From Heterotrichella gracilis (Eukaryota > Sar > Xanthophyceae > Tribonematales > Xanthonemataceae): a stretch of 64,000 nt of DNA. A program made the translations under genes and the position numbers. The stretch is taken from assembly GCA_032358255.1 (NCBI GenBank), contig JAULBX010009547.1, positions 1 to 64,000 on the forward strand, written 5' to 3'. Positions 148-62,630 of the stretch are shown here, piece by piece (positions within the stretch are counted from its first letter, which is position 1; each line of letters opens with the position of its first letter). The notes under the pieces were generated by a model that had not been told where the DNA came from, did not search any database, and was given only the letters and a program-made list of their open reading frames with translations.

Positions 148-3100
148 CTCCACTGCCCGGTAGTGGTGGATGGTGTCTGCCAACTGGCGGCACCCCGCGC
201 GCTCCTCGTCCTTGCGGCTCTGGACCACGCCTAGGGCATTGCCGATGTACGCCTCCAGGCCCTGCATCACCTGGGGAAGCGGGGGGGAAAAGCCTTAGGT
301 TAGGGTTTGCGCTGCTGGGCTAAAGGATAGGGCATTGTCAATGTAGGACTCCAGGCCCTGCATCACCTGGAGGAATGAGGACTACCCTAGTTTAGGGTCT
401 CGGGCAAGCGTTAAGGCCCTAGGGATTGCGCATAGGGCTCTCTTCGCACCAGAGTCGATACCCTATCCCAGTGTGCATGCAACACCGGCACAGTTGGAAA
501 ACCCTGGGGTAGGGTTTTGCATATGTGCATGCTCCAACCTGCATTCCCCCCCTTCCCCAGCCTCACCTCGTGTCCCATCTGGAAAAAGTGCAGGTGGGCA
601 TCCACTACCCTCCCTAGGGCGAACACATGGTGCAGGCCTAGCGCCCAAACCCTACTAGGTGCCTCACCTCGTGCCCCCTCTGGAAGAATCGCAGGTGCGC
701 ATCCACCCCGCTCACCATGGCCTCAAGGAACTCGTAGCGCTTGCGCAGCTCAATCTGCAAGGTGGGGAAGCGGGAAGGTGAGGAGGGGAGGGGAGGGAAC
801 CAGCGTGGCGCCAAGTGGCAGCTGCTTGCTCGGCACCCCCCGCTGTCTACCCTAGACCACCTCCACATGACCTCGTTACACCTCCGCCTGTTGGGCATAT
901 TTTTCATGCAGATGGTATAAAAACTACCAGGACTTGACTGCTTGAGCGCACGCGCAAGGCTGACAGCATCGCCGGAATGCATGTAACTAAATGCCACACA
1001 CCCCCCACACACCCACCCACCTGCGTGAGCTTCTGCGCGGCCTCAAACCTCGCCTCCTCCGCTGCCTGCTGCGCCTGCGCCACCTCCCCTTGTAGCCGCG
1101 CGGGGTCGTCCTGGCGGGGGAGCAACTTGCCATACACGCTCAGGTTGCTGCGGGGATGGTTGTGGGGGTGTTGAGGATGTGTTTGTGAGTGCAGGGCGGC
1201 GGCGGTGGCAGTGGTGAGTGTGAGGAGCTGGTTGTTGTGAATGTGATGGAGAGCGGCTTGTCATGCAGAGGACAGGCTGCTCTTTTACATGTGTGCGAGT
1301 GCTTGAGAGGCGCGGCGCCTCATTTGATGGCCCGCTCCGCTTGTCCATCTTGTGCCTCAGATGCATGACACCCTCATGCAGGGTTTCGTTGCTCTTTCCT
1401 TTGTGCTTGGACCACGCCGTCCCATGCGCATGAAACCCCAACCAAGGGCTTTGCTCCCCTTACCTGTGCCCCAGGTGCTTGAGCCGCGCCGCCTGGTATG
1501 CCGTGTTGCGCTTGTCCATCGTGCACCTCATATGCATGAAACCCTAATCGCGGCATTTATTGCTCCTCCCCAAGTGCGTGAAACCCTAACCAAGGGTTTT
1601 CACGCCCCTTACCTGTGCCCCAGGTGCTTGAGCCGCGCCGCCTCATATGCCGCGTTTCGCTTGTCCATCTTGCGCCGCTCCTCCCCCGCCTCATTCAGCA
1701 GCCCGCCCCACTGGGACTGCAGCCGCTCGCACAGGATCAGCTCAACCTGCGTGGATGAGGAGGGGGGGCAATACTTGGCTTGCATGCGGTGCAACGTGCA
1801 TTCGGACATGCAAACCCTAGACCCTCAACCCTGCAGAACCTTGAGGGCAAAAATGATCAACAGGTAATTTGAAACAGTGCTAGGATGGAACTGCTTGGGA
1901 CAGCTTAGCAGAGTCACTGGGTGGCGTGCATTAGTGTACCTAAACCCTTTCCAAGGGTTTTGGCCCGTACCTGCATGCGCAGCAGGTCGTAGAAGGATGA
2001 CAGCTCCCGGAAGGTGGACACAAAGCGAGAGGCCACGGGGCCACCTGGGGATAGGGAGGTGGGCGCGATGAACATCGGTAGTACCATATGGCATTCTGGA
2101 GAGTCTTTCTCTACCAGATGCAGCTTGGCAGCAAATGGCGTGGCCATTTTGGGTGTCTAATTGAGCACTTTGGTGGGTTTGGTGTCTGGTGTCCATGAGA
2201 AATATGGTTATAATCTCAAGAGATGGGTTGTGAATGCTGTGCGTAAGGGATGCTAGTGCGTGAGAGATGGGCGCCGTGTGTTGGCCCACAATGTTGCTCA
2301 GTACCTATCGCCGCTGACTCCTCCAGCGGCCCTGCGCAGAAGCCCTGCAGGGTGTCTGCAAAGGCCGTGGTTGCGTCCGCCATCTGCTGTATGGCCTCGC
2401 TGTACTTGCGCGAGCCCTTCACCAGGCTGGCGCACTTGTCTTTCAGGGGGCCCAGGCTCCCATCCAGCTCCGCAACCTATAGGAGCGTTGTACAAGGTAG
2501 GGGTGAAATAAACCCTATAGGAGTGTTTTGTGAAAGGTAGGGGTGAGCAGGGTTTGTGGTTTGGAGTGAGTTACACCGTTCGTTCCAGTGGCGCAGAGTG
2601 GTGCTGCGTGGGGCCAGTGTACCATGTGGTGTGGTGGTTGACTGAGGACTGCAGCGTGTTTGGTTTTAAACCCATCTCTTTTGCAACATATTTTGGTGGG
2701 TTATGTGGGGGTAGATAACAGCAGTCTGTAGCAGCACCAGCACCAAGGTCAGAAATGGACAGAGGCATGCATTTTACTTTCCCACCCACAAACAAGTTGG
2801 ATGGGTGTGTTTGTGCCGGTGGGCGTGTGGTTGTGCATGTGCACGGTGGTAGTCTGTTTGCCTACGTGACAGTACAGGGCCAGGAAACAGAGCAGCCTTG
2901 GGAGTGTATGGTGCACACAGGTGGGTACACCACCAAATGGCGCCAAATCCGGGGGAAGCACAGATGCAAGATGTGGGCTGCAGTAACACGATCGTGCTGT
3001 TGTTCTACCTCCGCATAAATAAATCAATTTCTTAATAACGGTGTTAACGCGGGTGGCACACAACCGGGGCCAACAACGTGCATGCATATATATGCGCGAG

Positions 3101-4201: not shown

Positions 4202-7200
4202 ATGGCGTCGTGCTTTCAAACAGCGGAGGCTATGGGCTGCTACCCAGACCCCAACGCAGGCCTCAGTTCCTCAGCCCTGGAGTTCGCAAACGAGGACAGG
4301 CTCCGGTTGCTTGAACGGCGGCTCACTGGTGGAGGCGGCACCCTCCTGCAAGCATTGCCACTCCACATGCCCACGCCATCCCCCCTCATGGACCAGAACA
4401 CCAACTCCTCCATCATCGAAAACAGCGTCAGCCGGTCCTCAGAAGTCACCTCCCCAGGCGTAACAAACCTTACCGGGGACGATGTCAGCCGGGACCAGTT
4501 CGGGGTGGTGGCCCATTTGGAAAACAACCCCCGCAAACGGGCACATGGCAGGCTCCCTCTGGAGGAGCTCAAACCAGGCACAGCCAACGGCAGGACCAAA
4601 AAGAGGCAGAGCTTATCAGCCTCCCCTTCAGCGCAAATCATAGGAGGCTTCTCGGGGACTTCCCCGCTGCCAGAGGGCAGGGAGGTGCAGGGGCCACGCA
4701 AGGGCGGTGGCAACAAAACCCCCCAGTCTGTCAAGTTCATGCAGCGCAACACCATCAACCAGTACTTCCCCAAGATGGGACGGGGCGGTGGCCAGCCCAT
4801 CAGCTGGGCTTCGGTTGGTACCCAGACCGAAGGTGGCGATGCGGAGCAGCAGCAGCTTGCGTTTCTGGAGGTGGAGGTGGCCGAGCTGAGGTAACCCCCT
4901 TGACATGCATCAATATGGCATGTGACCTAGCGCCTAACTGCACTGAACTGGCCACTGCCCATTGAAGCATTGAAAAACCAGGAGTCTAAAGGAAATGCAT
5001 CACTCTGTCACGCCTCCTGCTCTACCAAAGCTCCAGGAGCAGATGGCGACAGCCGAGCAGTCTGCCCATTCAAACATTGAACCCTGACCCTAAACCCTAC
5101 CCACCGCCACAGGCAGAGCAAGCAGCAGCTCCAGGAGCAGCTGGCAGCAACCGAGCAGTCTACCCATTTCAAACTTGAACTCTAAACCCTAAACCTAAAC
5201 CCTAAACCCTAAACCCACCGCCACAGGCAGAGCAAGCAGCAGCTTGTGGAGCAGCTGGCAGCAGCCCAGCAGTCTGCCACCTGCGCCAGCGCCGCAGTGT
5301 CCCGCCTTGAGTCGGAGGCTGCATCAGCCAGGGAGGCAGCGGCTGGCAAGGAGACAGCGGTGTGCAGCGCACTCACAACCGTGCTCAGGTGCGCATGTCC
5401 ACAAACCCTAAACCCTAAGGCTCAAGCCCAAACCCTAAAGGAGAAAGCGGTGTGCAGCGCCCTCACAACCCGTTCGCAAGTATGGAGTCCCCTTGCTTAC
5501 TGTGTGGGAAGCACTAGGCATCAACCTTTCTGCGCAACACTTGCAAGGTATCAGTTCTCACTAATAGAACAAGAGCTGCCCAGGGACCGAAAACTGCTCC
5601 TTCCAGGATTTGCCCTATAAATGTTTTTGCAAACCTCGCAGCTTTTCATCATTATTTGCTCATTCTGGTGCAGGTCTGGAGCTGCAGCTGAGCGTCAGAA
5701 CTGCGCCATGCGGCTCCAGCAGGCGGGCATTCGGCTGGGCACGCTGGCGGTGCAGGTGAGGGGGGCGGCATGTGAAAAATGCGTAAGATTCTTACTTTGA
5801 AATGCCAAGAAAATATGAGTAAGATTTCTTCACTGTTTCAAAGAAAAAAGAAGAAATCAGGCAGGCCTCGTGAAATTGGTTGTCCTTTTGGGGGCCTGCC
5901 AGCAATAGGTGCAAGCCCTGCCAGCATGTGCATATCCAAACGAGAAAGTGCATGTGTGCCTGCAGCCACTCCGAGGCTGGCTCTTTCCCACTCTGCCCCT
6001 TGCTCAACCAACGCACTCATACTTAGATGAAAAGCTATTCATTTATTCTTTGTTTATTTATTCGTGTATCTACATATATATTTATTTGTGCCTGCAGCGT
6101 GCGGGTGCGCTGGGTGTGCAGGAGGTGTGGGAGGATGGGCAGGCGTTCCACGACCTGAATGCAAGGGGGGCGGCGCTCCAGGAGAGGAAGGAGGCAATAG
6201 AGGCGGCAAGGAAGGTGGGGAATAAGAAAAGAATGCACACTTTGGACACGGCTGATTGTGTATTACATTATGTTACATGCATTCCCGCCAAGAAGCAAGG
6301 TCAGCTTGTAATGTGGGCCTCACATACCCCATACCCTACTCCCGACACCATAAACCCTACCCACATCAAGCCCGCATTCTGCACCCCACACAGTGAATGG
6401 TGCAATGGAATACCCACCATTCAATGGGAGTAAAAAGCAAATTAGAAACAGTATGTCCTCTTGATTCAGGTCCTGCGGCGCAAGCTGCCCCCCCCTGGCC
6501 ACCCGCTATCGCAGCCCCCTTCCGCCAGTGGCGGCGATGCGGGGCGAGGCGGCGCAGCATCCACCTCGCCCTCTGGCCACGACTACATCACACAGGATGA
6601 GTTTGTGGCACGGGATGAGATGTTCAAGGTGGGGACTGGGGGGGAGAGGGGAGGTATTTAATTAATTATTTATTTTTTATATGTTAATTTTTAAAGATAA
6701 ACGGGATGAGTTCGTGGCACGGGACGAGATGTTCAAGGTGTGGAGAGGGAGGGTGGGTGGGCGGGGGGGGCAAGCGCGCATGGGAGTGGAATGGTGGTGG
6801 TTAGAGATGTACACGCCTGTCCTTAAAGATGCACTTTGAGGAATTTACGTAGAGGGCAGTGGTCTCACAGGGCAGTCATTGGCATTTTCCACAAGTTGCA
6901 CCGTGAAACCCTAAACCCTGCCCCCCTCGCATAGGTCCGCCTGGCTGCCCTTAAGCGTGATGAGGAGCTGGTGAGCAGGGAGCGGGAGCGGCTGGAGGCA
7001 GACAAGGGGCAGCACATAAAGTGAGTGGAAGGGGATGGGAAGGGTGATGAACCCTAAACCTTCAACCCTAACAGTTCCTGTAGGGAGGGAGGGAGCGGTT
7101 GGAGGCTGACAAGGGGCAGCACATGAAGTGAGTGGAATGGGGAGGGATAGGGTAAACGGGGAGGGAGAGGGTAAAGAACCCTAACCAAAATTATAGTGCT

Positions 7201-9863
7201 GCGGTAACGTGCGTAAAACCCTAAACCATTGACCTTAACACTTCCAGCAGGAAGGGAGGGAACGGCGCATTGCTGTTCCAGACCAATGCCTACCTGTCTC
7301 CTTATCCCCAACCCCTGTCCCAGGGAGCTGCAGCACGTCAGCGGGGAGGCCAGCTCGAATATAACTACTTTTGTACTTCACTATTTATTTTCTGTCCCCT
7401 GATCCCCACCCCTTGTCCCAGGGAGCTGAAGCGGGTGCGTGAGGAGGAGGGCAGCCGCTTCTGCCACTACCCCGTCATGCACAAGCGATTCCTGCTGCTC
7501 AACCTGCTGGGCAAGGGGGGGTTCAGCGAGGTGTTCAAGGTAGGGGGAATTTGTAGGGGCTAGGGTGCTCATGCAGGGGGGGATAGGTAAAAAGTCTGTG
7601 TAGGGTTTAGGGTGTTGAAGCGCTTCCTGCTGCTCAACCTGCTGGGCAAGGGGGGGTTCAGTGAGGTGTTCAAGGTGGGTAGGTGGTTCATGTTCAAACT
7701 CAAAACCCAGAGATAATTTGCAGGAGTCGAGGATTCCAGATAAAGAAGGGTAGGCACAGACTTGTAAACGAAAAAAACTCACCTGTTGTAGACCCGTGAG
7801 ACTGCCTTTCAAGATCACCAGCTCAACACCATGTATTAGGGTTTAGGGTTCAGGGTTCGACATGCAGAGTTTTACTAATTTACCACCATGTTGTTTTTTA
7901 CTGATTTACCCCTTTGACCCCCAGGCATTCGACCTGAAAGAAACCCGCGAGGTGGCCGTCAAGATCCACCAGCTGAACAGCACCTGGAGCGAGGCCAAGA
8001 AGCAGTCCTACGTGAAGCACGCCATCCGGGAATATCAAATCCACAAGGAGCTTGCGCATCCCCGCATTGTGACCCTCGCCGACATCTTTGAGATCGACAA
8101 CAACACCTTTGCCACGGTGCTGGAGCTGTGCAGGGGGAGCGACCTGGACTCCTACCTCAAGGAGCACCAGGTGAGGAGGGTTAGATGTAGGGTTTTAAGT
8201 CCTTTTAATGGTGAAGGTTCTTTTAAGGGGTAATGGAAACCCTAAGATTAACAACAAGCGGACATGGTCCCACGTGTGTGCATGGCGAGGGGGGAGGAGG
8301 GACCACGCAATGTTCAGCCCATCTGCCTGATATATAATACATCGTATATAAATACAAGTTATTGCACCCAATTTTCAAAAACCACAATCGTTTTCAATCC
8401 CAAAACATTTATAACCCCTCCCCTCGTCTTCCCCCAGGTCTTGCCCGAGAAGGAGGCCAAAGCCATCATCGCCCAGGTGCTCTCCGGCCTGGCCTACCTC
8501 AACAGCCCGCCCCGAAGGGTCATCCACTTTGACCTCAAGCCGGCAAACATCCTGTTTGATGAGCAAGGCGATGTGAAGATCACCGATTTCGGGCTCAGCA
8601 AGATTGTGGAGGAGGGCCAGACGCAGGGGATGGAGCTGACTTCGCAGGGCGCGGGGACCTACTGGTACCTGCCGCCAGAGTGCTTTGAGCGGGGCGCGCA
8701 CCCACCCATGATTTCCAACAAGGTATGCGCTGTGACACGTCCAACCCTAAACCCTAAACCCTAAGAGCAGCCGTGTGCGCTGCCCACACACTATTGCACA
8801 CCCCCTGCACTGCGCTGCCTTGCCCATGCCTCAAACCCCTGCTATGGCTTTGGGGACCCCTCTGTCCCCATTCGCATGCCTCTTGTGGCCGGTGTTCTCC
8901 TGTCCTTCTCTTCTTTTATAAGCGGCCTCTTCCTCTCATATCCCCGCCTGCGGGTGGTCGTTTTGTCTGCTGGAGTCATCATCTACCAGAGGATCAAACA
9001 CCCCCACCATAAGATGGGAAATTCCTGACTCCTCCACCCGTTCATCTACCAGATGATGGATCACCGCCATTAGAACATGGAAAAGACTTCTTACTCCACC
9101 ACCCATTCCTTACAGGTTGATGTTTGGTCAGTGGGTGTCATCTTCTATCAGATGCTGTTTGGGCGCAGGCCCTTTGGCGAGGGCTTCAGCCAGGAGCGCA
9201 TACTCAGGGACCAGGTCATGCTCAACGCTAAGCAGGTGAGGGGGGAAAACATAACAGAAAGGATTTAAATGGAAACACAAGGAAGGAAAATGAAAATGGG
9301 ACTTGCTGCCAGGAGCGGATCTTGAAGGACCAGGTCATGCTCACCTCTAAGTAGGTAAAGGAAATAGTACTAGTAATACATTACGTTAAAACGGGATATT
9401 GTATTGTATGAAAAATAAGGAAAATGCAAATATCTTCCCAGCCAAGCCCTCTGTCTCTCCCAAGGCCAAGGAGCTCGTCCGCCACAGGTTCTTCCCCTAG
9501 CGGGGTTCTTCCCCCCCACTCCCCCTTGCCTGCCAACCCCCCTCAACCGCCCTGCCTCTCCAGAGCAACCCTTTCTAAAGGGTTGACAGGTTATATTCTA
9601 CAGGACAAAAGGATTAGATCTACTAGATCTACAAGATTGAAAATACTTTCTCACCCACTCCCCCACCTCCTCCCTTGCAGGTCACCTTCCCCGCCAAGCC
9701 CTCTGTCTCCCCCGAGGCCAAGGAATTCATCAGCCGGTGCCTGGCATACAGTCAAGGGGAGCGATGGGACGTGCTGGCAGCGGCATCCAACCCCTACCTC
9801 AGCTTCAAGCGCAACAGCAAGGGAGGGGGGGCCAAGGCGGAGACGGTGGAGCAAAAACCCTGA
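4202..9863 (+). CDS. TLK: Tousled-like serine/threonine kinase
   Basis: Exons: 4202-4890, 5227-5388, 5674-5755, 6098-6214, 6470-6628, 6935-7020, 7422-7539, 7925-8170, 8438-8722, 9116-9235, 9681-9863. The phases agree throughout, giving 748 residues, the usual TLK length. The N-terminal 230 residues are low-complexity and basic, with a TINQYFPKM motif resembling the TLK ISDYF element. Coiled coil follows, including [13 protein letters not shown], a Tousled signature. The kinase domain has GKGGFSEV near 463, the ATP lysine in AVKIH near 484, [10 protein letters not shown] near 583 (HFD instead of HRD; TLKs typically have HYD), DFGLSK near 603 and [11 protein letters not shown]. Known TLKs act in nuclear chromatin assembly through the histone chaperone Asf1; that role is inferred here. 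Introns contain many copies of exon edges. Confidence 0.93.
5026..5170. repeat. Two echoes of TLK exon 2 acceptor edge
   Basis: The beginning of exon 2 (5227 onward: GCAGAGCAAGCAGCAGCT) with its CCGCCACAG acceptor is repeated at 5107-5170. It is repeated in shorter form at 5026-5076. Each copy is followed by ACCCTAAACCCTA-type sequence. All three keep an AG acceptor or its remnant, so the outer copies may be alternative splice acceptors. Confidence 0.85.
5181..5216. repeat. Telomere-like CCCTAAA tract
   Basis: About five imperfect CCCTAAA units sit between an exon echo and the real exon 2 of the kinase gene. This is an internal tract with coding DNA on both sides, so it is not a chromosome end. 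Confidence 0.85.
5441..5480. repeat. Echo of TLK exon 2 donor edge
   Basis: GAGAAAGCGGTGTGCAGCGC followed by CCTCACAACC repeats the end of exon 2 (5350-5388). CCCTAAACCCTAAGG lies between the two copies. Confidence 0.8.
6706..6745. repeat. Echo of TLK exon 5 donor edge with AT-rich filler
   Basis: GGGATGAGTTCGTGGCACGG...ATGTTCAAGGTG repeats 6594-6632, the end of exon 5 with its donor. The DNA between the copies (6652-6700) is strongly AT-rich, unlike the surroundings. Confidence 0.85.
7083..7140. repeat. Echo of TLK exon 6 donor edge
   Basis: This copies 6978-7030 (GAGCGGTTGGAGGCTGACAA..., then GCAGCACATGAAGTGAGTGG). It includes the GTGAGT donor and differs at only a few positions. CCCTAAACC sequence lies between the copies. 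Confidence 0.85.
7300..7345. repeat. Echo of TLK exon 7 acceptor edge
   Basis: CTTATCCCCAACCCCTGTCC + CAGGGAGCTG repeats the polypyrimidine tract and acceptor of exon 7 at 7400-7430, but the following coding sequence has drifted. Confidence 0.7.
7615..7680. repeat. Echo of TLK exon 7 donor edge (ATP-loop region)
   Basis: This is a nearly exact copy of 7485-7545. It contains the stretch coding for [16 protein letters not shown] and a working-looking GTGGGT donor. TTTAGGG sequence lies between the two copies. The copy could in principle serve as an alternative donor edge. Confidence 0.88.
9311..9495. repeat. Echoes of TLK exon 10 donor and exon 11 acceptor edges
   Basis: 9311-9358 copies the end of exon 10 (CCAGGAGCG.AT.CT.A.GGACCAGGTCATGCTCA), but its CAG codon is now TAG. 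9436-9495 copies the start of exon 11 (9685-9745: CCAAGCCCTCTGTCTC.CCCAAGGCCAAGGA). Both copies lie in the single intron between these exons, so that intron grew from both sides. Shorter resemblances to exon 10 occur at 8970-9060. Confidence 0.8.
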
Positions 9864-11650: not shown

Positions 11651-11782
11651 CAAAAATATTTTGCTGTACTGCAATAGGAAAGCAGATGTGTCATCTGGCT
11701 GTACTAGAACATGCTGTCAAACTAGTTGGCAGTCGTTGCTCCCGCTTGCAGACAGTGCACCATACTATGCCTTACCAAGTGG

Positions 11783-13233: not shown

Positions 13234-16200
13234 TCATTCCCTCCCCAGGGACGACGCGCCTGTCCCAGGTTTCGTTTCTGGGGATGCATCATGTCTGGAT
13301 TCGATGTCTGGGGACTCAACTGTCACGGATTCAATCTTGGCCAGGGGCGCAGCTGTCCCGGATTCCATTCCCTGGGAGGCGGGTGGCGCCACCCGGGGGA
13401 GGAAAGGGAGGAGGAAACTGGGAGGCGCCTGGACCCCCCCTTGTGCCCTGTTAAGGGTATCGTCCGACCCCAAGCGCGCGTACTCCCACAGGGCTGCGGC
13501 GGTGGGGAGCCTCCTTCGGTGCTGGGCGGTGTGGGAGGCGGAGGAGGGGAGGGGTGTGGTGACGGGTGGGGGGTGGCGGGGGGGTGCTGCTGCTGCTTGT
13601 GGCGGTGGTGGGAGGGTGGGGGGTAGTGGTGGCAATGGATTGGTTGGGAGCCTCTGCATCAAGCAGCACGCAACATGAGCTCAGGAGGGGTAAACGTACT
13701 ACGGATTTGCCTTGAAATTTCATAGATTTACAATACACACATCCATACTATCTTGCTTTGGCTACTAACGAGGTGCATGCATGAGCTACATGAGCTACAT
13801 GAGCTGAGGATGGGCATGGAAACTGCCCCCTAAACCCTAAACCCTAAACCCTGCATGCGGCCAGCAACTGTCCAACCCATCTGTCGATGGGTTTGTGCAT
13901 CCACACATGACCACAAGCTGTGCATTCATGTACACCCCCATGCAGACATACATATGCACATCCCATACATACACCCATGGGTACCCAGGGCTGTACGTAC
14001 CCAAACCATGCATCTATACACACATCCACACATGCATGCGCCCACCCCACCCCACCTGAGACATTACCCTGCCAGCGGCACCAGGGGTGTAATGGGATGG
14101 AAGTGAAGGGGAAGCAAACCCACCCCCCTGATGGCCCGACATTCCATACTGTGGAACAGGGGGCGGCCCCATCGTGGTACCCACAAGGGGCCCAATGCGG
14201 ACCACGCGGGGATTGTGTGTGGGGGGTGGGGGCCCATGTGGGGGGTGGGGATGCGGCAGAGGTGCGCGGGGCGGCAGGGGGGCCGCTTGCGTAGGGAGGA
14301 GGGGGGATGCAGGGGGGGGAGGTCGTGGCCCTCGTGAATTGGAAGGGGAGGGATCAGACCTGCACAGCGCACCAAAATAAATAAATAAATAAAGAAATCA
14401 GACCTGCACAGCGCACCAAACTTTACCTTATTGCTCTGTATCACCTTGCTTACAGCTACTATGACCCTGTCTACTGCACTGTACACCAAACAGAGCTCTT
14501 CCTTCAACCTATGGTATGTCACTCAAGGCATGACTGTCACTCTGGGTATTATGCTTGACATGCAACACTCTGCGTCCGTGATGTTAGCCACATGTCCCCG
14601 CACGTTGGCGTTCCATTTCACGTGGCTAACTGACGCACGCGCCCCATCGTAACCCTAAACCCTGCCGCACATGCACCCCATGTTACGCACACCAGAACCT
14701 TGCACCCGCAATCTGCAATCACCATGCATCATCATCGTGGTTGCATTAATCAGCATGCACCCCACCCCACCCCACGCACATCTGCTGCTCCCCCGCATCC
14801 ATGCTCACAGGAGCCAGCAGCAGTGGGGGCACCCTAAACCCTAAACCCTAAACCCTAAATCAAAGCATGCACCCCACCCCACCCCACGCACATCTGCTGC
14901 TCCCCCGCATCCATGCTCCCAGCAGCCAGCAGCAGTGGGGGCACCCTAAACCCTAAATCCTAAACCCTAAACCAAAGCATGCACCCCACCCCGTGTCACT
15001 CACATGCGCTGCCCCCCCACATCCTAAACCCAAACCAACCACCACATGCACCTCGTTCCACCACCCCCACCCACCCCACCCCACGCACATCTGCTGCTCC
15101 CCCACATCCATGCTCACAGCCGCCAGCAGCAGTGGAGGCACACCCGCAGCACTGGCCACAGCTACCACGCACTGCGCATGCGCAAGGGCCGCCTCTGGTG
15201 TGCGCACGGCGCCACGCTGGGTGGTTAGATGCGCACACATGCTGGCCAGCGCACCCGCCGCCTGGAAAACGGGAACACAGAGGTGAAAACGGGCGGACAC
15301 ATGAACTAATCAGTTAGTTAGTTGGTTACACGGATTCCAGCAATACAGCCATGTTAGCAGTCAGTTTTGCACATACGGCGCCACGCTGGGTGGTGAGGTG
15401 GGCGCACATGCTGGCCAGCGCTTAAAAAGCGCTTAAAAAAGCCAGCGCACCCGGACAATCAAAATAGATAAACGAATAAGTGAACAAACGTGCGGAGGCG
15501 TGAATAAAGGGGGGAAAGGAGGCAAATGTTTTGACAAATAAGCAAACAGTAAGGGCCAGTGCTCGCCGCGGCATGCAGCCTGCAGACTTCGCACGCAAGG
15601 CAACGGGGTTATTTACGCAGAATAAGATACGTAGGATTTTCTTCCCATGTATGCCCCTTGCTCGAGGGCTGAGCACACGCCATGACTTCAACAAATTAGC
15701 AAAATTCACCATGGCAAACCACTTCTGCTGCATCTGGTTTTTGAGGTAGTTGGCCACTGTGGTGTGGAACAGCAGGAGAGATGCAGTTAATGGGGAAAGG
15801 GGTCAGCTCAAGCACACAACAGGGGGCAGAACCAAGAGGGAATAGAAAAGACGTTAGGGTTCTGGGTTTATGGGTTTGGGTCTAGCGCGGGAACACAACA
15901 GAGCGCAGGGGGAGTACAGAAGGCTGGAGGGATTTTCCCACCTGGTAGTTGCCAAGGGGAGTGTTGCCGTGGAGGTAGGAGGGGAGGGAGGAGGCAGTGA
16001 GCAGGGGGCGGACCCAGGGGGGGCTGGCACGAAACGAAAAGGGGACGGAAGAGCTTCGCCCGCACAGCTGGTTGAAGGCATCGGTGGCAGACACAGCAAA
16101 GCCTGCGGGAGAGGGTGGGTATGGGGGGTGGGCGGGGAGGTTCATGGCTCAAATTTGTCCATTGGGCAAAATTCCCACAGCGGTGACGGTAGTAGGGCTA

Positions 16201-30696: not shown

Positions 30697-33600
30697 TCAA
30701 ACCCTAGGGTAGGTTCCATTGGCCAGCACCTTATGCTCCGCACGCACCCCACCCCCCCCGCCGGCACCCTTGTGCACCCCCCCGTGCCCATTGAGCACCC
30801 CATTGTTGCCAAACCCTCCCCCCGAGCTACTCCGCTGCCTGCTCATGCCGCTCTCCTTGGCGGGCGAGGCCTGGGCGGTGCGCAGCAGCACTCGAGCGCC
30901 ATCCCCGCCACGTGGCGCACCGCCGTAGGGCGCCAGGGGGGGCGGCGGGGAGCCCGGGACGCTGAAGGACTTGGTTCGGGGGAAAGATCCCGGGGACTCC
31001 CGCCGCCGCCGCAGCCAGGTAAAAAATCCCATGATTGCCCCAAGGACCACCACCATCCCCAATACCGCTGCGGCGGATCCCAGGGATGGGGTACTGATGC
31101 CCGCGATCCCCAGGAAGCCGTTGCGCGTGATTTCCGCCGCGCCCGCCACCCCGTGCACCCGAGAACCCTCGGCTAGGGCCAAGCCTAGGGTCCACGCCTC
31201 CTTGCCAGTGCCCACCGTCACCTGCAGGTGGGGCCGCGGCTTAGGGTATATGTTTAGGGTTTAGGGTAATATTGAAAAGACCAATCAGCCAACGAGGATG
31301 GCCACCACACGGGTAGGCTTGCAGTTTTGATTGTGCGCGAGGCGAATCACAACTTCCAGATTGTGGTTGTACGCATGCATGCATGCATTGTGCCAGACGG
31401 AGATGCGATCGGGACTTGGGCTTCCAACGTCGACCGATTTTCATGAAACTGGCCCAATTTGAAGACAGCAGGGGGCAATGACCCTACAGCCTTAAACCCT
31501 AGCCAGGTCACCTGCTGGTTGGCCATGGCCAGTCCCTCCTGCAGCAGCAGCACCACGTAGGGTGTTCGGAAGCAGTACTCCTCAACGTGACGCTCACGAC
31601 CATGCTCCTGCAGGGCACAGGGGTGTGTATTTAGGGTTTAGGGTTCAGGGATTAGGGTTTAGGAGTAGGGTGCTCGGAAGCAGTACTCCTCAACGTGACG
31701 CTCACGACCATGGTCCTGCAGGGCACAGGGACTTGTATTTAGGGTGTAGGGTTAAGAAATCAGGGATTAGGATGAGGGATTAGGGTGTTCGGAAGCAGTA
31801 CTCCTCAAAGTGACGCTCCCGACCATGCTCCTGTAGGGCACATGGGTTTATTTATGGGGCTTACGGAGTAGGGTTTAAGATCAAAAATAAGGGTGTTCGT
31901 ACGCAGGTGCTCCTCAAGGTGACGTTCCCGCCCAAGCTCCTGTAGGGCGCAGACCAGCGGGTTCTGTCGGGGTCCTTTGGTTGGGTTTAAAGTTTAGGGA
32001 TTAGGGTTTAGGGTCCAGTATCTCAAGTCGGGTGTAGATGAACAGAGCGGTGTTTAGGGTAATGCTGCGGCTGCTGCATCTTGTTGTAAAAAGAGCAAGA
32101 GCAACACACACCCTGTAAGCAACGAATCAGGAAAGCCATCCGCGCAAAACCCACGAAACCCCCACAGCCTTCAGGAGAACAGCTTGACACTGCCTTTTGA
32201 CCCCCACCTTTTCCACCTTAGTCCAGGTTGTGTTGCAGTATTCTCTCCCCCTGGCCAGCAGCTGATCCAGGCTGGTGCCACCTGGCAGGCTGAAGAAGTG
32301 GTACATCACAAAAAACCCTACACAAGGGTCGAGCAAAGGGATGGGGCTGTCAGCATGGAATGTGCAAATTGGGACCCTGTGCAGTGGTAAGCAGGGCCCT
32401 GTTGGCAATGCCGTGCAACATGCTTCAAGGTCCACAAATAACCCTTGGCAAGGGTTGTGAGCCAGGGACTTAGACGCCATTACAATGCTGTCATGCAGTC
32501 AGTCATGTGACACTACCATGCTTGTGCGAAAGAGTGTGGGAATGGCTCGAGGTTCAGATCATGAAGCAGGCTTTTGCAACACCTCGAGGGTTCAGGCCAC
32601 GCGCAGCTTGTGGTCCTTGAGGGTGTCAGGGGTTTGGGAGCGCTTGCATTAGGGTATTTGCCTACCAGTGAGGGCATGGAAATGCGCGGCGGTGCGGGGC
32701 TGATGCACCCCCAGCGCACAGGGTTTGGGCTTGCACGCTGACGTGGCATTGACCACCTGCCTTGCCAACCGCGTGCAGGCGCCCCAGTCGCCGCTGCCAA
32801 CCAGGTGCACCTGCATGGACATACAATATAGGTTTTAGGTTTTAGATTTCAGGGTTTAGGGTTAGGCGCCCCAGCCGTCATTGCCAACAATGTGCACCTG
32901 CATGGACATACAAAATAGGTTTAAGGTTTTAGGGTTTAGGGTTTAGGGCGCCCCAGCCTTGGCTGCCAACAAAGTGCACCTGGATTGACATGGGTGTTTG
33001 GAACCCTTAAAAAGGGTTTAGCCTGACAAGAGGTAAGTAATGGGCTAATATGTCACAGCATTGATGGGGTCGGTGGACCCTAACCCCTAAAGCGACAGAC
33101 CCTAGCCGCCAAAGTGGGCGCAGGTCCTACAGAGCGACACCCCCAGCAGTTGTGCAGGTACTAGGCAGTTTCCCTCCTAGTGCCCCAAAGTTCAAACCCT
33201 AAAGTTCAAACCCTAAACCACTGAGACCCTTACCTGTGGTAGGTAGGTGTTGCTGCCCGGGACGGGGCGACGGGTGTAGGTTCGGTTGTAGCCCACGTGG
33301 ATGCAGGGGTGCATAACAGTCGGGAGGGAATCGGACTGCAGCCGGCGCCGGGACGCCTCCAATCCCCGCTGCCCTTGCGAATTTCCTTCGCCAGGGGAAG
33401 CATGATGCAGTAGAGCATCAGGGAGGGAAAGCTGCCTGCGCCTTGCCACCCCCATGTGCCTCCTCTTCAGCTTCGGAACATCCAGCTCCCCCCCTCGCGC
33501 TTTGATGAAGACCCCCCCCTTGCGCCCCCCCCACCCGCTGCCGCTCGCCGAGGGCTGCGCTAGGGTTTTGGCGGCCTGCGCCCCGACCTGGAAGAAACCC

Positions 33601-40785: not shown

Positions 40786-43700
40786 TCACGACGTGGTGAA
40801 TGTGGTCCCCTGCGGCACTGGGCCCCAGTCCTGAATGACCTCCCTGTGGCAGGACCATACCAAGCGGATGGCCTCGGGGGTGCCTATGCCTGCTGCTCGG
40901 GGGTCCCCGGCTGGGCCAAACCAGTGGTTCTGGGGGGCGCCTGCGGGGTGGGTGGGTGGGAGGGTGAGTGCACCGGAGTGGTTTCGTGAGGGAGGGGGAG
41001 GAAGAGGATGGGGAAGGAGAGGGGTACAATGCAATGGGGTGGCACTGCACAAACCAATGATTCTGGAGGACTGCCTGGGTAGGAGAAGGGATAGGGCAAC
41101 AGAGTGGCCATCTGAGCCAGGGGTTTAGGGTTTAGGGTTGCCAGCTGAGATAAGGATCACCCGCGAGGTTGATTCGGGTGATACGCCAACGCTGCCAACG
41201 TGCCCCGCAACATTTCCCTAAATGATCGGCCTCCATCTGAATATTTCGCACCGTCCCACCCCCCCTTCCTCACCTGTCGTCCTCCCCCTGATTCCCACGT
41301 AGGTTGTCCCGTTCACCGTCTCCCCCAGCACGCGGTTTACCCACTGCACGTCATTGGACACAATGGCTGCTGTGAGGTGCGCCTCCATGCGCTCACAGGC
41401 CTCCAGCACCAGGGGCAGCTGGGCGTCGGAGTACCGAGTGATGACCTGCAAAACGGGGGGGTACAGCACTGTGAAATGCGGTGATTTTACCACCGTACCC
41501 GGTACACCTAATTGGGGTCAAGCAGTTAGATGGCGCGTGAGGTGCGCTGCCAGGCCTCAAGCACCAGGGGCAGCTGGGAGCCAGAGGACTGGGTGATGAC
41601 CTGCAAAGGTGTAGGGTGACGTTGAAAGGAAGTGGGGGTGAGAAATTGCATTTGGGAAATGGGGGTGGGGCAGTAATGCTGTTGGAAAATAGGGTGTAAG
41701 TAAAGGGGATGAAATTGGTCAGCCTCCATGCGCTCACAGGCCTCTATCACAAGGGGCAGCTGGGAGTCAGAGTACCGGGTGAATGTTATTTTTTTTTATC
41801 AAATTTCTTTATGAAATGCTCACGATTTTCGCTCATTTTTATGGTCCCCACCTGTACGGGGCCAAACACCTCGGTGGTGACCAGCGGGAAATTCTCGGGC
41901 TTGAGGATTTCCTCGATGGGCACAAATACCGCGGTGGGCTCAATTGCGCCGTACACCTCGGGGATCTTGTGGCCCTTGAGTGGGGATCCGCCAAAGCTGA
42001 GCCGAGCACCTGGAAAAACAATATACGTCTTTGTTGAAGCAAAAACAGCAACAGTTGCCGCCAAAACGGTAGCTTTCAGCGTCACACAAACTGCGCCCTG
42101 CGAGGGCGGGTCATGGTTCATGTATTCACACATGGCGATGCGCAACATATGCACATCCACATTGCATAGAGATGGCCATGGCCCGGGGAACCAGACGCCG
42201 AACTAGTGGGGATATTGCACGGCCTTTGCCTGGGATTTGCAGCAGCTTCTGCACCTGCCACAAATGCGTGCACGTCCCCCGGGGACAAGACGCCGCCCGA
42301 GCGGGGATTTTGCGCGGCCTCACCTGGGATTTGGAGCAGCTTCTGCACGTGCGCGATCATTTTGTCGGTGGTCCACGTCAGCACCGGGCCAATGGTGACG
42401 TCATCCAGGGTGCGCAGCGAGGCGCGCTGCTTCAGGCTGGCTTCCAGGCCTGGTGAAAACGATGGGGATTAGGGTTTAGGTGGCGGTTTCTTGCTAAAGT
42501 TTTCAACATGACATCAGACAGGGTGCGTGAGGTAGGCGTGCTGCTCTAGGCTGGAATTTAGGCCTGGGGACAGCAGGGTTTGGGGTCCGGTTAGGGAATT
42601 CCAGGCCTGGCAACAACAGCGGAGTTTAGGGTATTGGTGGGGTTTGGGGCTAGCTGTGGACACCGGCATCTGCAGGGAGGTGTGCCCTATGGCTGGACCC
42701 ACCCTGGTGAGTAATGTATAAAGACCATGGTTTCATCGATAGCGCTCAAGCCCAACAGCAGGGGTGGCTGCAACTTCCTGCCCTATCAAGCAGCCGCATC
42801 CAAATCCCCTCCCTTCTCACCCAATCTTTCCCCACAACACCACACTGACACCCACCTGCCTTGGCCCAGTTGTCGTGCATGAAGAGTATGGACTGCGCGC
42901 TGCACTTTTGGCCGCTGCATGCGTAGGCGTCCTGGTCACAGGTGTAGGCAACAAAGGCAAGCTCAGACACGTCGGGGCCCAAGATCTTCCAGTCGAATCC
43001 CGCGTCTTCAAGGAACACCTGCGCACAAAAGGGGGGGGGAGGGGCTTTGGTGGTGTCGTGGAACAGGGCATGCAGCGAGAAGCGTAAACCTTGTTTTTAT
43101 CACTTATTTTGGCCCATTTTCCTGTATTTCCAGTTCACCAGGCGGGAGGCACTAAGTAGGGAAGTGCGCCAGCAAAACATGCCTGTGCCCCTCGAAAACC
43201 CCCACAAGATCACACACGATGCTGTGGTTTAGAGTTTGCAATACCCTCCTCCTGCAAGGACTCTTAGGGTGCCCTGCCATAGGGGCTGCACCCACCTTGC
43301 CATGGAAATCCGCTGCCAGCTACTCCGCCACCCGCTTGGTGGTGTAGGGTTTAGGGTTTAGGGTTTGACGAACCCTCCTGCAGCAAGTACTCAACACCCC
43401 ACCATTGGGCTGCACCCACCTTGCCATGGAAATCCGCTGCCAGCTTCTCCGCCACCCCCTTGCTCCCGGTGAACTGAATGCTCCTGGGCTGGGCATCCAA
43501 CAGCACCTGGTTGACCATGGGTCCCCTCCCGTTCAGGAAATCAACATCCCCCCTTGGCATGCCGCACGCGTGGAGCATGCGCAGGAAAGCCTCCGCCACC
43601 ACGGCGACCCTAGGGGGAAGGAGCGAACCGATTTATGGGTTAGGGCTAGGGTTTTGGGGGTATGCGCTCATGGGGTGTGTACCTGGGATAGGAGTGGATG

Positions 43701-58274: not shown

Positions 58275-59819
58275 AAAGGGGCGCGTCGCAATACAAAATT
58301 TGATTGCCAACTATCACTGGGCCCAGGCTTGTTGCGAATTGTTTCCATTTTTGCCAAAATGAATGACATGCATGCGAGGTTTCCAGGAGTTTTTAGGGGT
58401 TTCCAAGGTTTTCAGCCGGATTGCTTCACATATGGGGTCGGTGGTCTCGCGTGAGCCAGTGGTCCTTTGACTCCACCTTTGCGCGACGCCGTCCCCTTGC
58501 TCTCAATCCTTGGTATGATGGGTTTTCAAACTGGGACGCTGGCGATGTTGTCAGGAGCATTCACTGAATATTTGCACCACTATGCACTGCACCAACTTTC
58601 AAAACCTAGAGGCAGGGATTTGCAGGAGTTGGGCAAATTGCATGCCATATGCCCAGATACCTGGACAGGTGGCGCACTCTAGAGCTGGGATTGGCAGGGC
58701 TGTGCAGCCGGCAAATGGGGGCATCTGCAAGTCACTGCCACTTTCAGGCGTTACGATACCATAAAGAACAGCCTGGCATAATTGTTAGTAGATCTACCGT
58801 CTAGACGAGCCCACGTCCATTGGAAAATCACTGCCTACTCCAGCAAATGTCTGGCAACAAGGTTGCCCAGAGTGGGGGTGCTTGCGGATGGGAAGTAATG
58901 TTTCCATTACGGTATGCAATATCAACGTGCCCTCCAACACTGCCTATAGCTGGAGCTATATAAATAAGGTCACAGTAGCCAATGTACGCAGTTTTGTGCA
59001 CCATATGTATCATATTCAAAAGCAAAATGACGCATTTGCTGGCACCAACTTGAATACATAAACAATGCCTATCGACTCAGAGCAAGCCTGCCTGCTGCCA
59101 AAGTGGGAAAGAATCAAGCGAGTGCTTTTGTTGCATCGCGCGTAAAATTGGGGCCCCCGAACGCACCATTGGCACAACAATGCAGCGTGTCCACCAGTGT
59201 GATCAATTGGTCATGTGTCACATGCACAGCTCCCCATACATATTGCTCCCATGCTGTGCTGGTCACATATTTGGTTCTCCTCCCATTGCTGCTGGCACCA
59301 TACGCCTGCTGCCATTGCGCCTGCCACACATGGCTAGCGCTGCGGCGAGAGCCCAGCTGCGTTACCGCCACCATGGCAAAAGCTCGCGCAGGGCTGGGCG
59401 CCCGGGTGTCACCGCTGCTCCCATGGATGCGGCCCGGGCACCAAGTCACACCTGTGGCCAACGCACAGGGTTTAGGGTTTGGAGGGCGTGGATATTAGGG
59501 TTTGCCTTGCCTGGCAATCCCTAGCCAGGCGTGTAACCATTGCCTGTCTTCACCATATAGTTCCAGGTCACGCAAGCGCCTAGCTAGAGAACAAACCCCG
59601 ACCTCGCCTACTTAACAACAGCAAGAATGCCCCGCTTGTGCGGGAAATGCCCACCATGTACACAGGATTCCTTCTAATAAAATAATTTTTTTCCTGTTTT
59701 AGATAAAGCTGTTGCATGATAGCAGGCACCCCCCTGGCGAGGCGGTTGTGCCCACCATGTACACAGGATTACATACAATTTTCTAAAACGTATTTCCTCC
59801 TTTTAAAAGGTTGCCTTAC
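58275..59819. other. Convergent intergenic region
   Basis: 1.5 kb between the methyltransferase stop and the last P4H exon I can place. The missing final P4H exon should lie here. A candidate acceptor at about 59583 (CTAGCTAG, minus strand) would allow a short open tail but lacks the expected cysteine close by. No other gene is seen. Confidence 0.4.
59640..59765. repeat. Echoes of the P4H ShKT exon donor edge
   Basis: GTTGCATGATAGCAGGCACCCCCCTGGCGAGGCGGTTGTG + CCCACCATGTACACAGGATT at 59711-59770 copies 59822-59880. A shorter piece (GCCCACCATGTACACAGGATTCC) is at 59648-59671. AT-rich filler separates each copy. Confidence 0.88.
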
Positions 59820-62630
59820 CTGTTGCACGACAGCAGGCAGGCCCCCGGTGAGGCGGTTGTGCCCACCATGTACACTGGGTTGTTCTGGCACTCGCCCGAC
59901 TCCGCCCAGTGGGGGCACCCCTCGTTGCTGTCTGAGCAGCCCACAGGGGCCGGTGGGGGCGGTGGCACAAAGATGATGTGCTGGATGGTCACGCCGGGAC
60001 CGTCCATGGCGTAGGGGCCCACATGCACCCTGCGATCGGGAGTTGGAGGAGGGTTGGGACATGGTATGCTGCGATCGCAGCCATTAAGCAGCCAGGATTT
60101 CCCATATGAATGAAATCTCCATCACCGCCACCACCCACACAGCATGGCATATGACGGGCGTATGCAAGGGACGTGAGGCATGCAGCCTGTGATTCGCACC
60201 GAATCTAACGCCCTGGGCTGCTGCATGTGCCTGTACTCACAGCAAGTGCACTAAACCAATATGGCAAGTGGTAAGCACACCTACTGGTAACCCATGAACC
60301 CCCGGTAAGTGATGTGCATGTTACATTACCCCACCCCTCACCATTTTGTTGCCGACCACTTTTCCCCCTTGATGACTGGGCACCCCCCATGCAGCGCCCC
60401 TTGGTCCAGCCTCCCATCAGTTTTCAGACTCCAAAAAGCGATTGCATCCCCCTTGCGTGGCCGCACCGCCAGGCCCTGCATGGCGCAGGCGCTGTACCCC
60501 GCCTCTGGCGTCTGGCCAGCTGGCACGGGCGTGTTGGGGAACACCTGCGATGCAGCACATGGCATTGTTTGGATACAGGTACTCCGCCAAGGGCGCCTGG
60601 CCGGGTTTGCAGTGCTCACGAGGTGCAAGATGTGCCACTCTAAAGCAGCGGCAGTGTTTGCTCTTTCATTGCCGCCAGAGGAATGCCATCGGATGGTGGC
60701 ATGGAAACCTTGCCAGAAACATGGATTTGCCCATCTGAGCCCTCAGCTCCTCACCCCCCCTTTTCCATATCCAACAGGTGCCAGGCTACAGAGCATCGGG
60801 GACATGGGCTTCAAACACTATGTAGAGCTCTAAACTGGAAAATGCCATGGAGTTACGGTAGGCACGGCGGGCTTACACACCCACAACATCCCTCCCCCGC
60901 CCTCCTTCTCTTTACTGATCCCATAGCTGCGTGGGTTCTCTTCACTATTATTTCATTTTATTACATAATTTTAATTTATTCTCATTATCCTCACCGTTTC
61001 GGCCCCCTCCTCCACGTCCGACAGGTACATGAGTATAGTCAGCAGGCGGTTGCCGCCATTATTACTTTAATATTGTTATTATTATCGTCATCCTCACCGT
61101 TTCACCCCCCTCCTCCACGTCCGACAGGTACATGAGTATAGTCAGCAGGCGGTTGCCGCCGTTCTCGTTGGCCTCCTTGTGGAAAAAGTAGTCAAAGTGG
61201 GCGTCGTACTTCTGGCCGTGCTCGTAGTGCAGCACCTGCGGTGGGCACCATCAATTGTGAGAGTGAGGAAACCCTAAACCCTAGCCAATAGCCGTGGCTC
61301 GTGTCCAACTTATTGTGCTCATGTTCACAATGAGCACAATTGAGTTGCTGATTGAGTTGCTTATCCGATGTGACCTAAACTGCTTTGGAGTGCACCTCCA
61401 GTTAAGCGCGTGCAATTGCGAAGCCCAAATAGGGTTTACACGTCCATTGCAGCATGAGCCCAACGACATACTGGCTGTGCAGGAAGTGAGGTTCACCTGC
61501 ATGCCTTCACCATTGATTGCCGGTACCATCGTCCATTCTGCTATCCGGTCCTCCACATCTGCAGCCAAACCACCACCAAAAAAATTAGCCTTGCTTAATA
61601 GGTAACAAAATTACTTAAGAAGGCCCGGTAGCAGTTTGAATTAACCTTAAGCAACTCCTGACCTTGCATGGCATGAAACGTGCATGGCGTGTCAGGTTCG
61701 TATCATGGCCAGTGACGTGCACGTCAGAAAGACAGGGTTCAAGGAAAGCGTGCCATGCGGTTCAGGTGGTGAGCTGCCGCAGCAAAACAGCAGCTTGCAG
61801 CATGGGATATATACCTGCCACGATGGGCGTCTCTGAGGTGGAGAAGTACGCTCCACTGCTTGTGCGGATTTCGCTCGCCACGCCGCCCCCCGTCTGGTCA
61901 TCCACCACCTCGCTGCGCTCCATGCGGGGCTTGGCTAGGGCAATCATGTGGTCGCACTCCTCTGCGGCATGCACACATGGTGGTGAACAACTGATGTAAG
62001 ATGTAAGATGACCTACACACCCACACCCAAATCCCCGTCCCCACCCCATCCACTCCATCTCAACCATCCTTGCACCACATATGGTCCCCTTGCTATTGCC
62101 ATAAGGGTTTCTGTTTAGGGTCAAGCCAGTTACTCGGAAGCCCCATGCAGCCGAAGTGTAGGCTTGTGCACACCGTGCCTTACCAGGGGTCATGAAGTTG
62201 TGGTACAGGAAGACCCTTGGGCTCCAGGATAGCACGTCCATCTGGCCGTGGTGGGCTTTGGAGGCAGCGGCAGGGTCATACCCGGGCCTGCGGCCCCCCT
62301 TTTTTATCGAGTGTGACTCCCCAAGCCAACCTGTTGCAAGCCATGGGGTGAGCAAACCAGCATAGAATAGACAAAATACTTGTTCAAGTGTGTGCTGGGC
62401 AGTGGGAAAGTTGTATCCAAAGCAGCCTGTTGCGAGTGGCAAGGCAAGGCAAGGCATGGGTCAGCGCTGTCCCCACCCAAAGGCCCCTCACCTATCAAAT
62501 CAGGATCTGCAGCTCCAAGGGCTGCAAAGGCTTCAGCCAATACTACACACACCACTAGCAAGGCCGCTGCCAAAGTGGGCTGCCTGTCCCCATGCAGGTG
62601 GCGATGGTGCCCTGGCCCAGAACCCTTCAT
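59820..62630 (-). CDS. P4H: Prolyl 4-hydroxylase with C-terminal ShKT domain (last exon not found)
   Basis: Exons, in order of translation: 62492-62630, 62184-62330, 61815-61961, 61497-61558, 61098-61235, 60342-60544, 59820-60029. Phases agree over 348 residues, leaving two bases for a further exon. The N-terminus has a signal anchor ([20 protein letters not shown]). P4H motifs follow: [45 protein letters not shown] with Fe ligands H178/D180, LHGGCPV with H263, and GEKWSATKW with the 2-oxoglutarate Lys near 273. A ShKT-type Cys module ([18 protein letters not shown] ... SC) has five of six cysteines; the sixth should be in the missing exon. The enzyme hydroxylates peptidyl proline, for example in cell-wall glycoproteins, in the ER/Golgi using Fe(II), O2 and 2-oxoglutarate. 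Confidence 0.92.
60985..61055. repeat. Echo of a P4H exon donor edge with AT-rich filler
   Basis: CTCACCGTTTC.GCCCCCTCCTCCACGTCC and GACAGGTACATGAGTATAGTCAGCAGGCGGTTGCCGCC copy 61092-61158, the donor edge of exon 61098-61235. About 45 bases of TTATTATT-type sequence lie between copies, and more AT-rich sequence lies beyond (60945-60985). Confidence 0.92.

What the first reader, a model, noticed from the sequence alone, without database searches (positions are those of the whole stretch)
148..62630. Systematic 'exon echoes': introns carry decayed copies of the adjoining exon edge with its splice site
More than twenty times in this window an intron contains one to four partial copies of the neighbouring exon end, including the acceptor or donor. 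Examples are 1459-1525 vs 1609-1675, 7615-7680 vs 7485-7545, 31669-31950 vs 31557-31620, 45588-45655 vs 45699-45763 and 60985-61055 vs 61092-61158. Seven separate genes show it. Copies closest to the real exon are usually the least changed. The copies often alternate with telomere-like or AT-rich filler. This suggests repeated local duplication at exon-intron borders as a route to intron growth, perhaps through break repair with filler DNA. I know of no described system with exactly this form.
Basis: partly seen in the sequence, partly recalled or inferred. Interest (0 to 1): 0.88.

Follow-up and report, generated by a model that had tools for sequence, protein, structure and literature searches.

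The report
Decayed exon-edge copies inside introns
In this alga-like genome many introns carry worn-out copies of the end of the neighbouring exon, often with telomere-like DNA between copy and exon, which looks like scars of repaired DNA breaks that splicing hides from the protein.

Summary
With my own gene models for 324 kb (window plus parts of contigs C2 and C24), 62 of 327 tested introns carry an exon-edge copy: window 21/63, C2 38/197, C24 3/67. Exon-edge probes hit their own intron 43/652 times; shuffled, foreign and antisense introns 0/652 each. The copies decay like neutral DNA. A model of random local duplication plus decay expects 45-56% of detected events to touch exons; I see 71/87. 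In the youngest events homology tends to stop just past the splice site. Part of the excess is GC content and slower exon decay.

TTTAGGG caps contig ends. Intronic runs of it are flanked by direct repeats in 24/94 cases, against 9% at random positions in the same introns; spacers are telomere-like in 6/11 of the youngest events.

Best reading: staggered breaks repaired with duplication of the broken edge, sometimes with telomeric filler; copies survive where splicing removes them. Each part has precedents; the density and combination are new to me. 'Nearest copy least changed' failed. No RNA or empty-site evidence.

The parts
560..706 (-). BAR-domain gene: echo 560-605 of exon edge 661-706, including the donor
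   Evidence: 87% identity; BAR_3 Pfam match of the gene model
1285..1676 (-). BAR-domain gene: two echoes (1285-1356 and 1421-1527) of exon end 1613-1676 with its donor
   Evidence: 77% and 87% identity
5029..5278 (+). Kinase gene: tandem echo of an acceptor and exon start; unit about 98 nt with telomere-like run 5182-5216
   Evidence: 80% identity; run flanked by direct repeat
5348..5470 (+). Kinase gene: exon-end copy 5438-5470 behind a telomere-like spacer
   Evidence: 94% identity; spacer telomere score 38 vs 16 for the reversed motif
6592..6753 (+). Kinase gene: exon-end copy 6701-6753 with donor, AT-rich 56-nt spacer
   Evidence: 87% identity
7483..7679 (+). Kinase gene: exon end 7483-7539 and its echo 7618-7679; homology stops about 5 nt into the intron; spacer with TAGGGTTTAGGG
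   Evidence: 95% identity
9189..9735 (+). Kinase gene intron 9236-9680 with both a donor-side echo (9308-9356) and an acceptor-side echo (9434-9483), 77 nt apart
   Evidence: 84% and 86% identity
14752..15141 (-). Array: exon end 15070-15141 and echoes 14873-14944 and 14761-14832 with telomere-like runs between
   Evidence: 94% identity each
15206..15421 (-). Copy 15375-15421 of exon 15206-15252 (starts 9 nt inside the exon)
   Evidence: 91% identity; all four differences at third codon positions
31557..31952 (-). Apyrase-like (GDA1/CD39) gene: acceptor plus exon start and its tandem echoes, period about 108 nt, with telomere-like runs
   Evidence: 3.6 copies; Pfam PF01150 E 9.8e-58
32777..32991 (-). 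Apyrase-like gene: acceptor edge and its tandem echoes, period about 87 nt
   Evidence: 2.6 copies; 82-83% identity
41381..41782 (-). Aldehyde dehydrogenase gene: edge copies 41381-41452, 41543-41607, 41722-41782
   Evidence: 85-90% identity
43226..43462 (-). Aldehyde dehydrogenase gene: echo 43226-43338 of 43355-43462
   Evidence: 81% identity
43840..44211 (-). Aldehyde dehydrogenase gene: exon end 44139-44211 with tandem echoes of about 98 nt and telomere-like segments (outside the tested introns, the gene model ends here)
   Evidence: 91-97% identity
44284..44597 (-). Aldehyde dehydrogenase gene: echo 44496-44597 of acceptor edge 44284-44385
   Evidence: 79% identity
45541..45764 (-). Aldehyde dehydrogenase gene: tandem duplication of donor edge, unit about 107-115 nt
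   Evidence: 90% identity
59648..59881 (-). 2OG-Fe(II) oxygenase gene: echo of edge 59749-59881 (outside the tested introns)
   Evidence: 74% identity
60958..61163 (-). 2OG-Fe(II) oxygenase gene: plain tandem duplication across the donor, unit 101 nt
   Evidence: 89% identity; Pfam PF13640

Best explanation
The echoes are scars of repaired local DNA breaks. SHOWN: direct copies of exon ends, reaching mostly 20-100 nt into the exon (66/71), lie in the neighbouring intron, spaced mostly 80-220 nt from the source (66/71), with no coding constraint. Some are plain tandem duplications across the splice site; in others the copy is separated from the exon by a non-homologous spacer, which in a minority overall, and in 6 of 11 of the youngest events, is telomeric repeat. 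Telomeric runs in introns sit next to the ends of direct repeats more often than random points do. INFERRED: a staggered break near an exon edge is filled in and joined, duplicating the overhang; at some breaks telomerase, or a telomeric donor, adds TTTAGGG repeats before joining. INFERRED: selection removes almost all such events inside exons, but at an edge the outer copy keeps a complete splice site, so the extra DNA is spliced out and then decays. Recurrence lengthens introns.
For: Reach and spacing. Direct orientation only: 43 sense hits, 0 antisense, of 652 probes. Neutral decay: differences at codon positions 1/2/3 = 134/125/217 over about 1165 sites each, third share 0.456 (about 0.5 expected if only the exon is constrained); 49 of 54 indels shift frame. 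Purging: exon-internal repeats in 4 of 306 exons >=120 nt, in 3 of the 4 all spacings are multiples of 3. Real telomere motif: (CCCTAAA)7 within 140 nt of the start of 6 contigs in that orientation, and ending 0-5 nt from the end of 5 others in the reverse one; (CCCTAAA)3 matches 834 times, scrambled (CCCATAA)3 9 times, all at one place. Motif 4-8 per 10 kb per orientation in introns, 2 intergenic, 0.1-0.2 in exons. Telomere runs >=14 nt flanked by direct repeats 24/94 vs 90/953 positions in the same introns (p 3e-5) and 68/1740 in run-free introns; in 8 loci fetched for the motif 8/18 runs vs 29/441, which is 7/15 after dropping runs counted twice or already in the C2 sample, all from 3 loci. 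A copy end lies within 6 nt in 18/24 vs 35% of flagged control points. Spacers telomere-like 11/57 vs reversed motif 1/57, by identity 6/11, 1/7, 3/18, 1/21 from youngest to oldest. Telomerase RNA-binding domain present.
Against: No empty orthologous site was available, so insertion is inferred. A coarser test found no excess of motif within 10 nt of echo-copy ends (19 vs 16.2 expected) and no clear orientation rule in spacers. Most spacers (46/57 at score >=26) are not telomere-like. Telomere runs inside tandem units would also score as flanked. Exon-edge excess and the small intronic part exceed a neutral local-duplication model even with GC weighting, so something further favours exon ends. 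C24 is nearly free of echoes, unexplained.
Confidence: 0.55

Rival explanations
1. Ordinary tandem duplication by slippage or unequal exchange makes units of about 100 nt everywhere; telomere-like sequence is only a passenger inside units, and selection alone places survivors at exon edges.
For: Several loci are full head-to-tail arrays (units 87, 98, 101, 108, 112 nt). Intron windows also show local repeats (58/1565) and the rate rises with GC; GC-adjusted odds ratio for exon edges is only 2.0 (1.2-3.5), near what slower exon decay gives.
Against: In young events the spacer and intron flank are mostly not homologous: 3 of 20 events with identity >=88% share the intron flank at +7..+40 (this test missed at least the plain tandem case 60958-61163, so 4 or more is fairer). 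Edge fraction 71/87 against 45-56% in simulations, and intronic part <=13 nt in 16/20 against 32-39%. Telomere runs flanked by repeats more than points in the same introns.
Confidence: 0.25
2. Breaks or copying are tied to splicing or transcription: exon ends are the preferred source because processed exon RNA, or chromatin or R-loops at splice junctions, guides the event.
For: Excess of exon sources and homology ending just past the splice junction in the youngest events. In one intron (C2 20265-20580) donor-side and acceptor-side copies lie 5 nt apart.
Against: In the other 8 of 9 introns with both kinds of echo the copies are 75 nt or more apart, so they are not joined as in a spliced message; in the close case both copies stop short of the splice junctions. 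Several young copies carry 12-47 nt of intron, so genomic DNA was copied. Young sample is 20 events.
Confidence: 0.12
3. Introner-like or other mobile element inserting at splice sites with a target duplication.
For: Insertions lie at AG/GT boundaries and carry duplicated flanks.
Against: 81 matches between different introns, of which 60 were listed; the listed ones are 21-75 nt long, none covers a whole intron. I did not classify them one by one; many lie in telomere-like stretches. Duplicated segments vary from 20 to over 100 nt, unlike fixed target-site duplications (recalled).
Confidence: 0.04
4. The copies are functional alternative exons or alternative splice sites.
For: GT kept in 25/31 and AG in 19/26 echoes whose homology reaches the junction.
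Against: That retention is about what neutral decay near 11% predicts (inference); codon-position pattern and frameshifts show no constraint; spacing is not in frame (donor side 6/38, acceptor side 13/33 multiples of 3).
Confidence: 0.03
5. Assembly artefact or chance.
For: None found.
Against: Copies differ by substitutions spread over many ages; 0/652 in three controls; same feature in other contigs.
Confidence: 0.01

Closest known systems
Repair-mediated duplications by capture of proximal DNA (Pace et al. 2009, PMC2671141; abstract and sections 7 and 10 read)
   Same: Short copies close to the source, filler at many junctions, no constraint seen on the two duplicated exons tested there; a few human donors were partial exon/intron.
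   Different: Human: 4 partial exon/intron donors among 824. Here 71 exon-edge events in 327 introns, direct only, and telomeric spacers.
Short interstitial telomeric insertions at double-strand breaks (PMC7215372; passages read)
   Same: True telomere repeat inside chromosomes, absent from exons; some with duplication of the target, ascribed there to staggered breaks.
   Different: Pure duplication at 3 of 66 horse loci, plus 2 with deletion, addition and duplication; here 24/94 intronic runs lie between direct repeats, often made of exon ends.
Small tandem duplications by fill-in of 3' overhangs by CST-Pol alpha-primase (PMC8355091; abstract and introduction read)
   Same: Would give X-X duplications, by a complex that also fills in telomeres.
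   Different: Not tested here; many of our copies have spacers.
[quoted passage not shown] PMC4974935, abstract)
   Same: Duplication across or at exon borders that splicing tolerates; the potato case crosses an intron-exon boundary.
   Different: Here the events lengthen an existing intron; only 2 introns show an exon1-exon2 pairing as in the AGGT model.

Membership tests
Repair-mediated (proximal) duplication | Donor and copy within 5 kb, copy outside coding sequence | tested here: met
   Smallest spacing per edge 65-252 nt, 0 antisense; note the search looked only within each intron plus 150 nt of exon
Repair-mediated (proximal) duplication | Microhomology, deletion or filler against an empty ancestral site | not testable with these tools
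   No relative's genome held; no second copy of the kinase locus in the own genome
Interstitial telomeric insertion | Repeat identical to the organism's telomere | tested here: met
   (CCCTAAA)7 at the start of 6 contigs, reverse orientation at the very end of 5 others
Interstitial telomeric insertion | One-step insertion with bases in register at the break | not tested
   Needs ITS-less alleles
Interstitial telomeric insertion | Target duplication at part of the loci | tested here: met
   24/94 runs flanked by direct repeats vs 9.4% in the same introns; tandem units containing a run count too
Intron gain by tandem duplication (AGGT model) | Copies pair the upstream exon end with the downstream exon start across the new intron | tested here: not met
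   2 introns in class exon1-exon2 vs 71 edge-to-intron events
Introner elements | Many introns of one sequence family | tested here: not met
   No full-length match among 399 introns in the 60 of 81 hits listed
Tandem or mutually exclusive exons | Both copies under coding constraint | tested here: not met
   Third-position share 0.456, 49/54 indels frameshifting

The most novel reading that the evidence does not exclude
In this alga, breaks concentrated at splice junctions are repaired with telomerase-made filler and duplication of the adjoining exon end, so that telomeric break repair is a continuing main source of intron lengthening.
Probability: 0.22. Interest if true: 0.85.

Novelty: new variant of a known kind. 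Interest (0 to 1): 0.6.

Why it matters
How introns lengthen and arise is argued mostly from rare cases. Here about one tested intron in five carries dated, partly decayed traces of the events, with an internal clock (codon positions) and in part a visible filler. That would let break-repair models of intron growth be tested in one genome, and ties telomeric repeats to gene structure.

Tried and rejected
Sharp-junction idea: the homology end is closer to the splice site than simulated, but the young sample is only 20 events and some copies carry 12-47 nt of intron, so I do not claim an RNA-guided event. Telomerase orientation rule (G-type left, C-type right in spacers): 203 vs 162 bases, not convincing. 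Hairpin idea (TTTAGGG near donors, CCCTAAA near acceptors): CCCTAAA is equal in both intron halves (44 and 44) and TTTAGGG only somewhat commoner in the 5' half (37 and 24), so dropped. Displaced flank homology: 5 of 27 echo flanks match the spacer, 0 of 27 the other way, so later insertion explains only a few. Tandem paralogues: two of the pairs seen (C2 near 76-79 kb, C24 near 21.5-23.4 kb) were aligned and gave no usable echo comparison; a third (C2 7-10 kb) was not aligned. Chlorarachniophyte origin: Amorphochlora (214 Mb, GC 27%, TAACCC telomere) does not fit (PMC12730881, passages). Organism not identified; 'alga' rests on telomere motif, splice sites and gene content, recalled. Acceptor-side spacings fall in two groups (76-114 and 157-252 nt, none between): post hoc, unexplained. 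Spacing under 80 nt is rare at edges (3/71) but common in intron-only repeats (9/16; p 4e-6); a minimal-intron-size reason is only a guess. Literature: nine search listings seen; no paper on telomere-spaced exon-edge copies among the listed rows, in that open-access library only.
Full report
Material. The window is contig C97:1-64000 of a 68.5 Mb, 903-contig genome. I could read a further 200 kb of C2 and 60 kb of C24 and eight 3-kb loci found with (CCCTAAA)3. No annotation or RNA is available. I wrote a self-trained gene finder: 72 genes, 471 exons, 399 introns in 324 kb, donor CAG|GTRAG, acceptor GCAG|G. Seven of the 12 window models were scanned against Pfam and each matched at least one family: BAR domain, protein kinase, GDA1/CD39, aldehyde dehydrogenase (two models, probably pieces of one gene), 2OG-Fe(II) oxygenase, and one zinc finger below its curated cut-off. 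A genome search with the kinase family placed exons at 7928-8170 and 8435-8689, as in the model. Further tests used the 327 introns with both flanking exons scored >=12 and length 60-1500.

The observation. All five quoted pairs are present. Exon-edge probes of 40-60 nt hit their own intron at score >=40 in 25/326 (upstream exon) and 18/326 (downstream exon) cases; shuffled, foreign and antisense targets gave 0/326 each. Probes 100-160 nt inside exons gave 1 of 357. With a lower threshold there are 38 donor-side and 33 acceptor-side events (best per intron and side) in 62 introns, 16 introns with intron-only repeats, 2 with exon1-exon2 pairs and 3 others. By contig: window 21/63, C2 38/197, C24 3/67. 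The window is the place where the feature was first noticed, so C2 is the fairer estimate.

Age and constraint. Differences between exon and echo fall 134/125/217 on codon positions 1/2/3 over 1165/1166/1165 sites, and 49 of 54 indels shift the frame. That is the pattern of a free copy against an exon that changes mainly at third positions. Ages are spread: 15 events at >=90% identity, 15 at 84-90, 24 at 78-84, 17 below. GT is kept in 25/31 and AG in 19/26 echoes whose homology reaches the junction, about what neutral decay gives (inference). Echo introns are longer, median 414 vs 284. In the four introns with several separable copies, the nearer copy was more similar in 2 and less similar in 3 comparisons.

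Is it special to exon edges? Exon-internal repeats occur in 4 of 306 exons >=120 nt; in 3 of these all spacings are multiples of three, so selection appears to purge the rest. I simulated random local duplication, splicing viability and decay, with copy lengths and spacers taken from the observed young events: expected share of edge events 0.45 for all and 0.36 at >=88% identity, 0.49-0.56 and 0.42-0.46 with GC weighting (an earlier run gave 0.46 and 0.38); observed 71/87 and 20/25. The copy reaches no more than 13 nt into the intron in 16/20 young events against 32-39% expected, and the flank test finds a shared intron flank in only 3 of those 20, missing at least one plain tandem case. Against this, a window-based regression gives an odds ratio of 2.0 (1.2-3.5) for exon edges after GC and length, and slower decay of exon copies alone could give about 2; that count scores each intron-only event twice, so a residual excess near two-fold is my estimate, not a measurement. 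Mixed conclusion: part survivorship, part GC, and probably some real preference.

Telomeric filler. (CCCTAAA)7 occurs within 140 nt of the start of contigs C70, C140, C609, C712, C717 and C770 in that orientation, and in reverse orientation ending 0-5 nt from the end of C173, C460, C607, C660 and C872, so this is the telomere repeat. (CCCTAAA)3 matches 834 times genome-wide, a scrambled motif 9 times at one place. In my sample the motif is concentrated in introns, 4-8 per 10 kb per orientation against 0.9-1.7 for the reversed motif; 22 of 39 echo introns hold one against 58 of 288 others (higher echo threshold; echo introns are longer). Runs >=14 nt in introns are flanked by direct repeats, motif masked, in 24/94 cases against 90/953 random positions in the same introns and 68/1740 in run-free introns. 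The eight extra loci gave 8/18 against 29/441; L001 lies inside the C2 sample and L005 and L006 overlap, which leaves 7/15 new runs, all seven from L002, L003 and L007. A copy end lies within 6 nt of the run in 18/24 against 35% of flagged control points. Spacers: 11/57 telomere-like, reversed motif 1/57, 3.3% in non-echo introns, 5.8% in the rest of the same introns; by identity of the copies 6/11 at >=92%, 1/7, 3/18 and 1/21 (a post hoc split), as expected if filler decays. Negative results: an earlier test of echo-copy ends found 19 within 10 nt of a motif against 16.2 expected, and no orientation rule. A telomerase RNA-binding domain is encoded.

Interpretation. Staggered breaks near exon edges, filled in and joined, give direct duplications; adding telomeric repeats before joining gives X-telomere-X. 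Both steps are known elsewhere: overhang fill-in by CST-Pol alpha-primase (PMC8355091), telomeric insertion with target duplication at 3 of 66 horse loci (PMC7215372), and proximal repair duplications in primates (PMC2671141). Splicing hides the product at edges. That these steps happen here is inference; the anatomy is shown. Plain slippage remains the main rival. A spliced-message template is unlikely: in 8 of 9 introns with both kinds of echo the two copies are 75 nt or more apart; in the ninth they are 5 nt apart but both stop short of the splice junctions.

Limits. One genome, 324 kb of 68.5 Mb, contigs chosen by size rather than at random, gene models without RNA, few young events, no empty sites, and several tests devised after seeing the data.

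Noticed in passing
L029-L034 (C24:1-60000): Almost no echoes (3/67 introns) and few repeats compared with the window (21/63) and C2 (38/197); regional difference unexplained.
   Followed up: partly
acceptor-side echoes in window, C2 and C24: Smallest spacings fall in two groups, 76-114 nt (12) and 157-252 nt (21), with none between.
   Followed up: no
window 15253-15375 and C2 near 86958-87020, 91958-92014, 188100-188146 (L017, L018, L027): A short dispersed repeat of about 50-75 nt shared by introns of different genes.
   Followed up: no
C2:164284-170666 (L025-L026): Gene model whose protein looks like two LysR-type regulator units in tandem, like plastid RbcR regulators (recognised from memory, not searched).
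   Followed up: no
C2:187503-196317 (L027-L028): Gene model starting with a diaminopimelate-decarboxylase-like part and continuing into a coiled-coil part; possibly two genes merged by the gene finder (recognised from memory).
   Followed up: no
window 6934-7045: Probable kinase-gene exon missed by my gene finder, itself echoed at 7086-7153.
   Followed up: partly
C2:20266-20580 (L011): The one intron in which a donor-side and an acceptor-side copy lie only 5 nt apart; could be chance or a joined copy.
   Followed up: no
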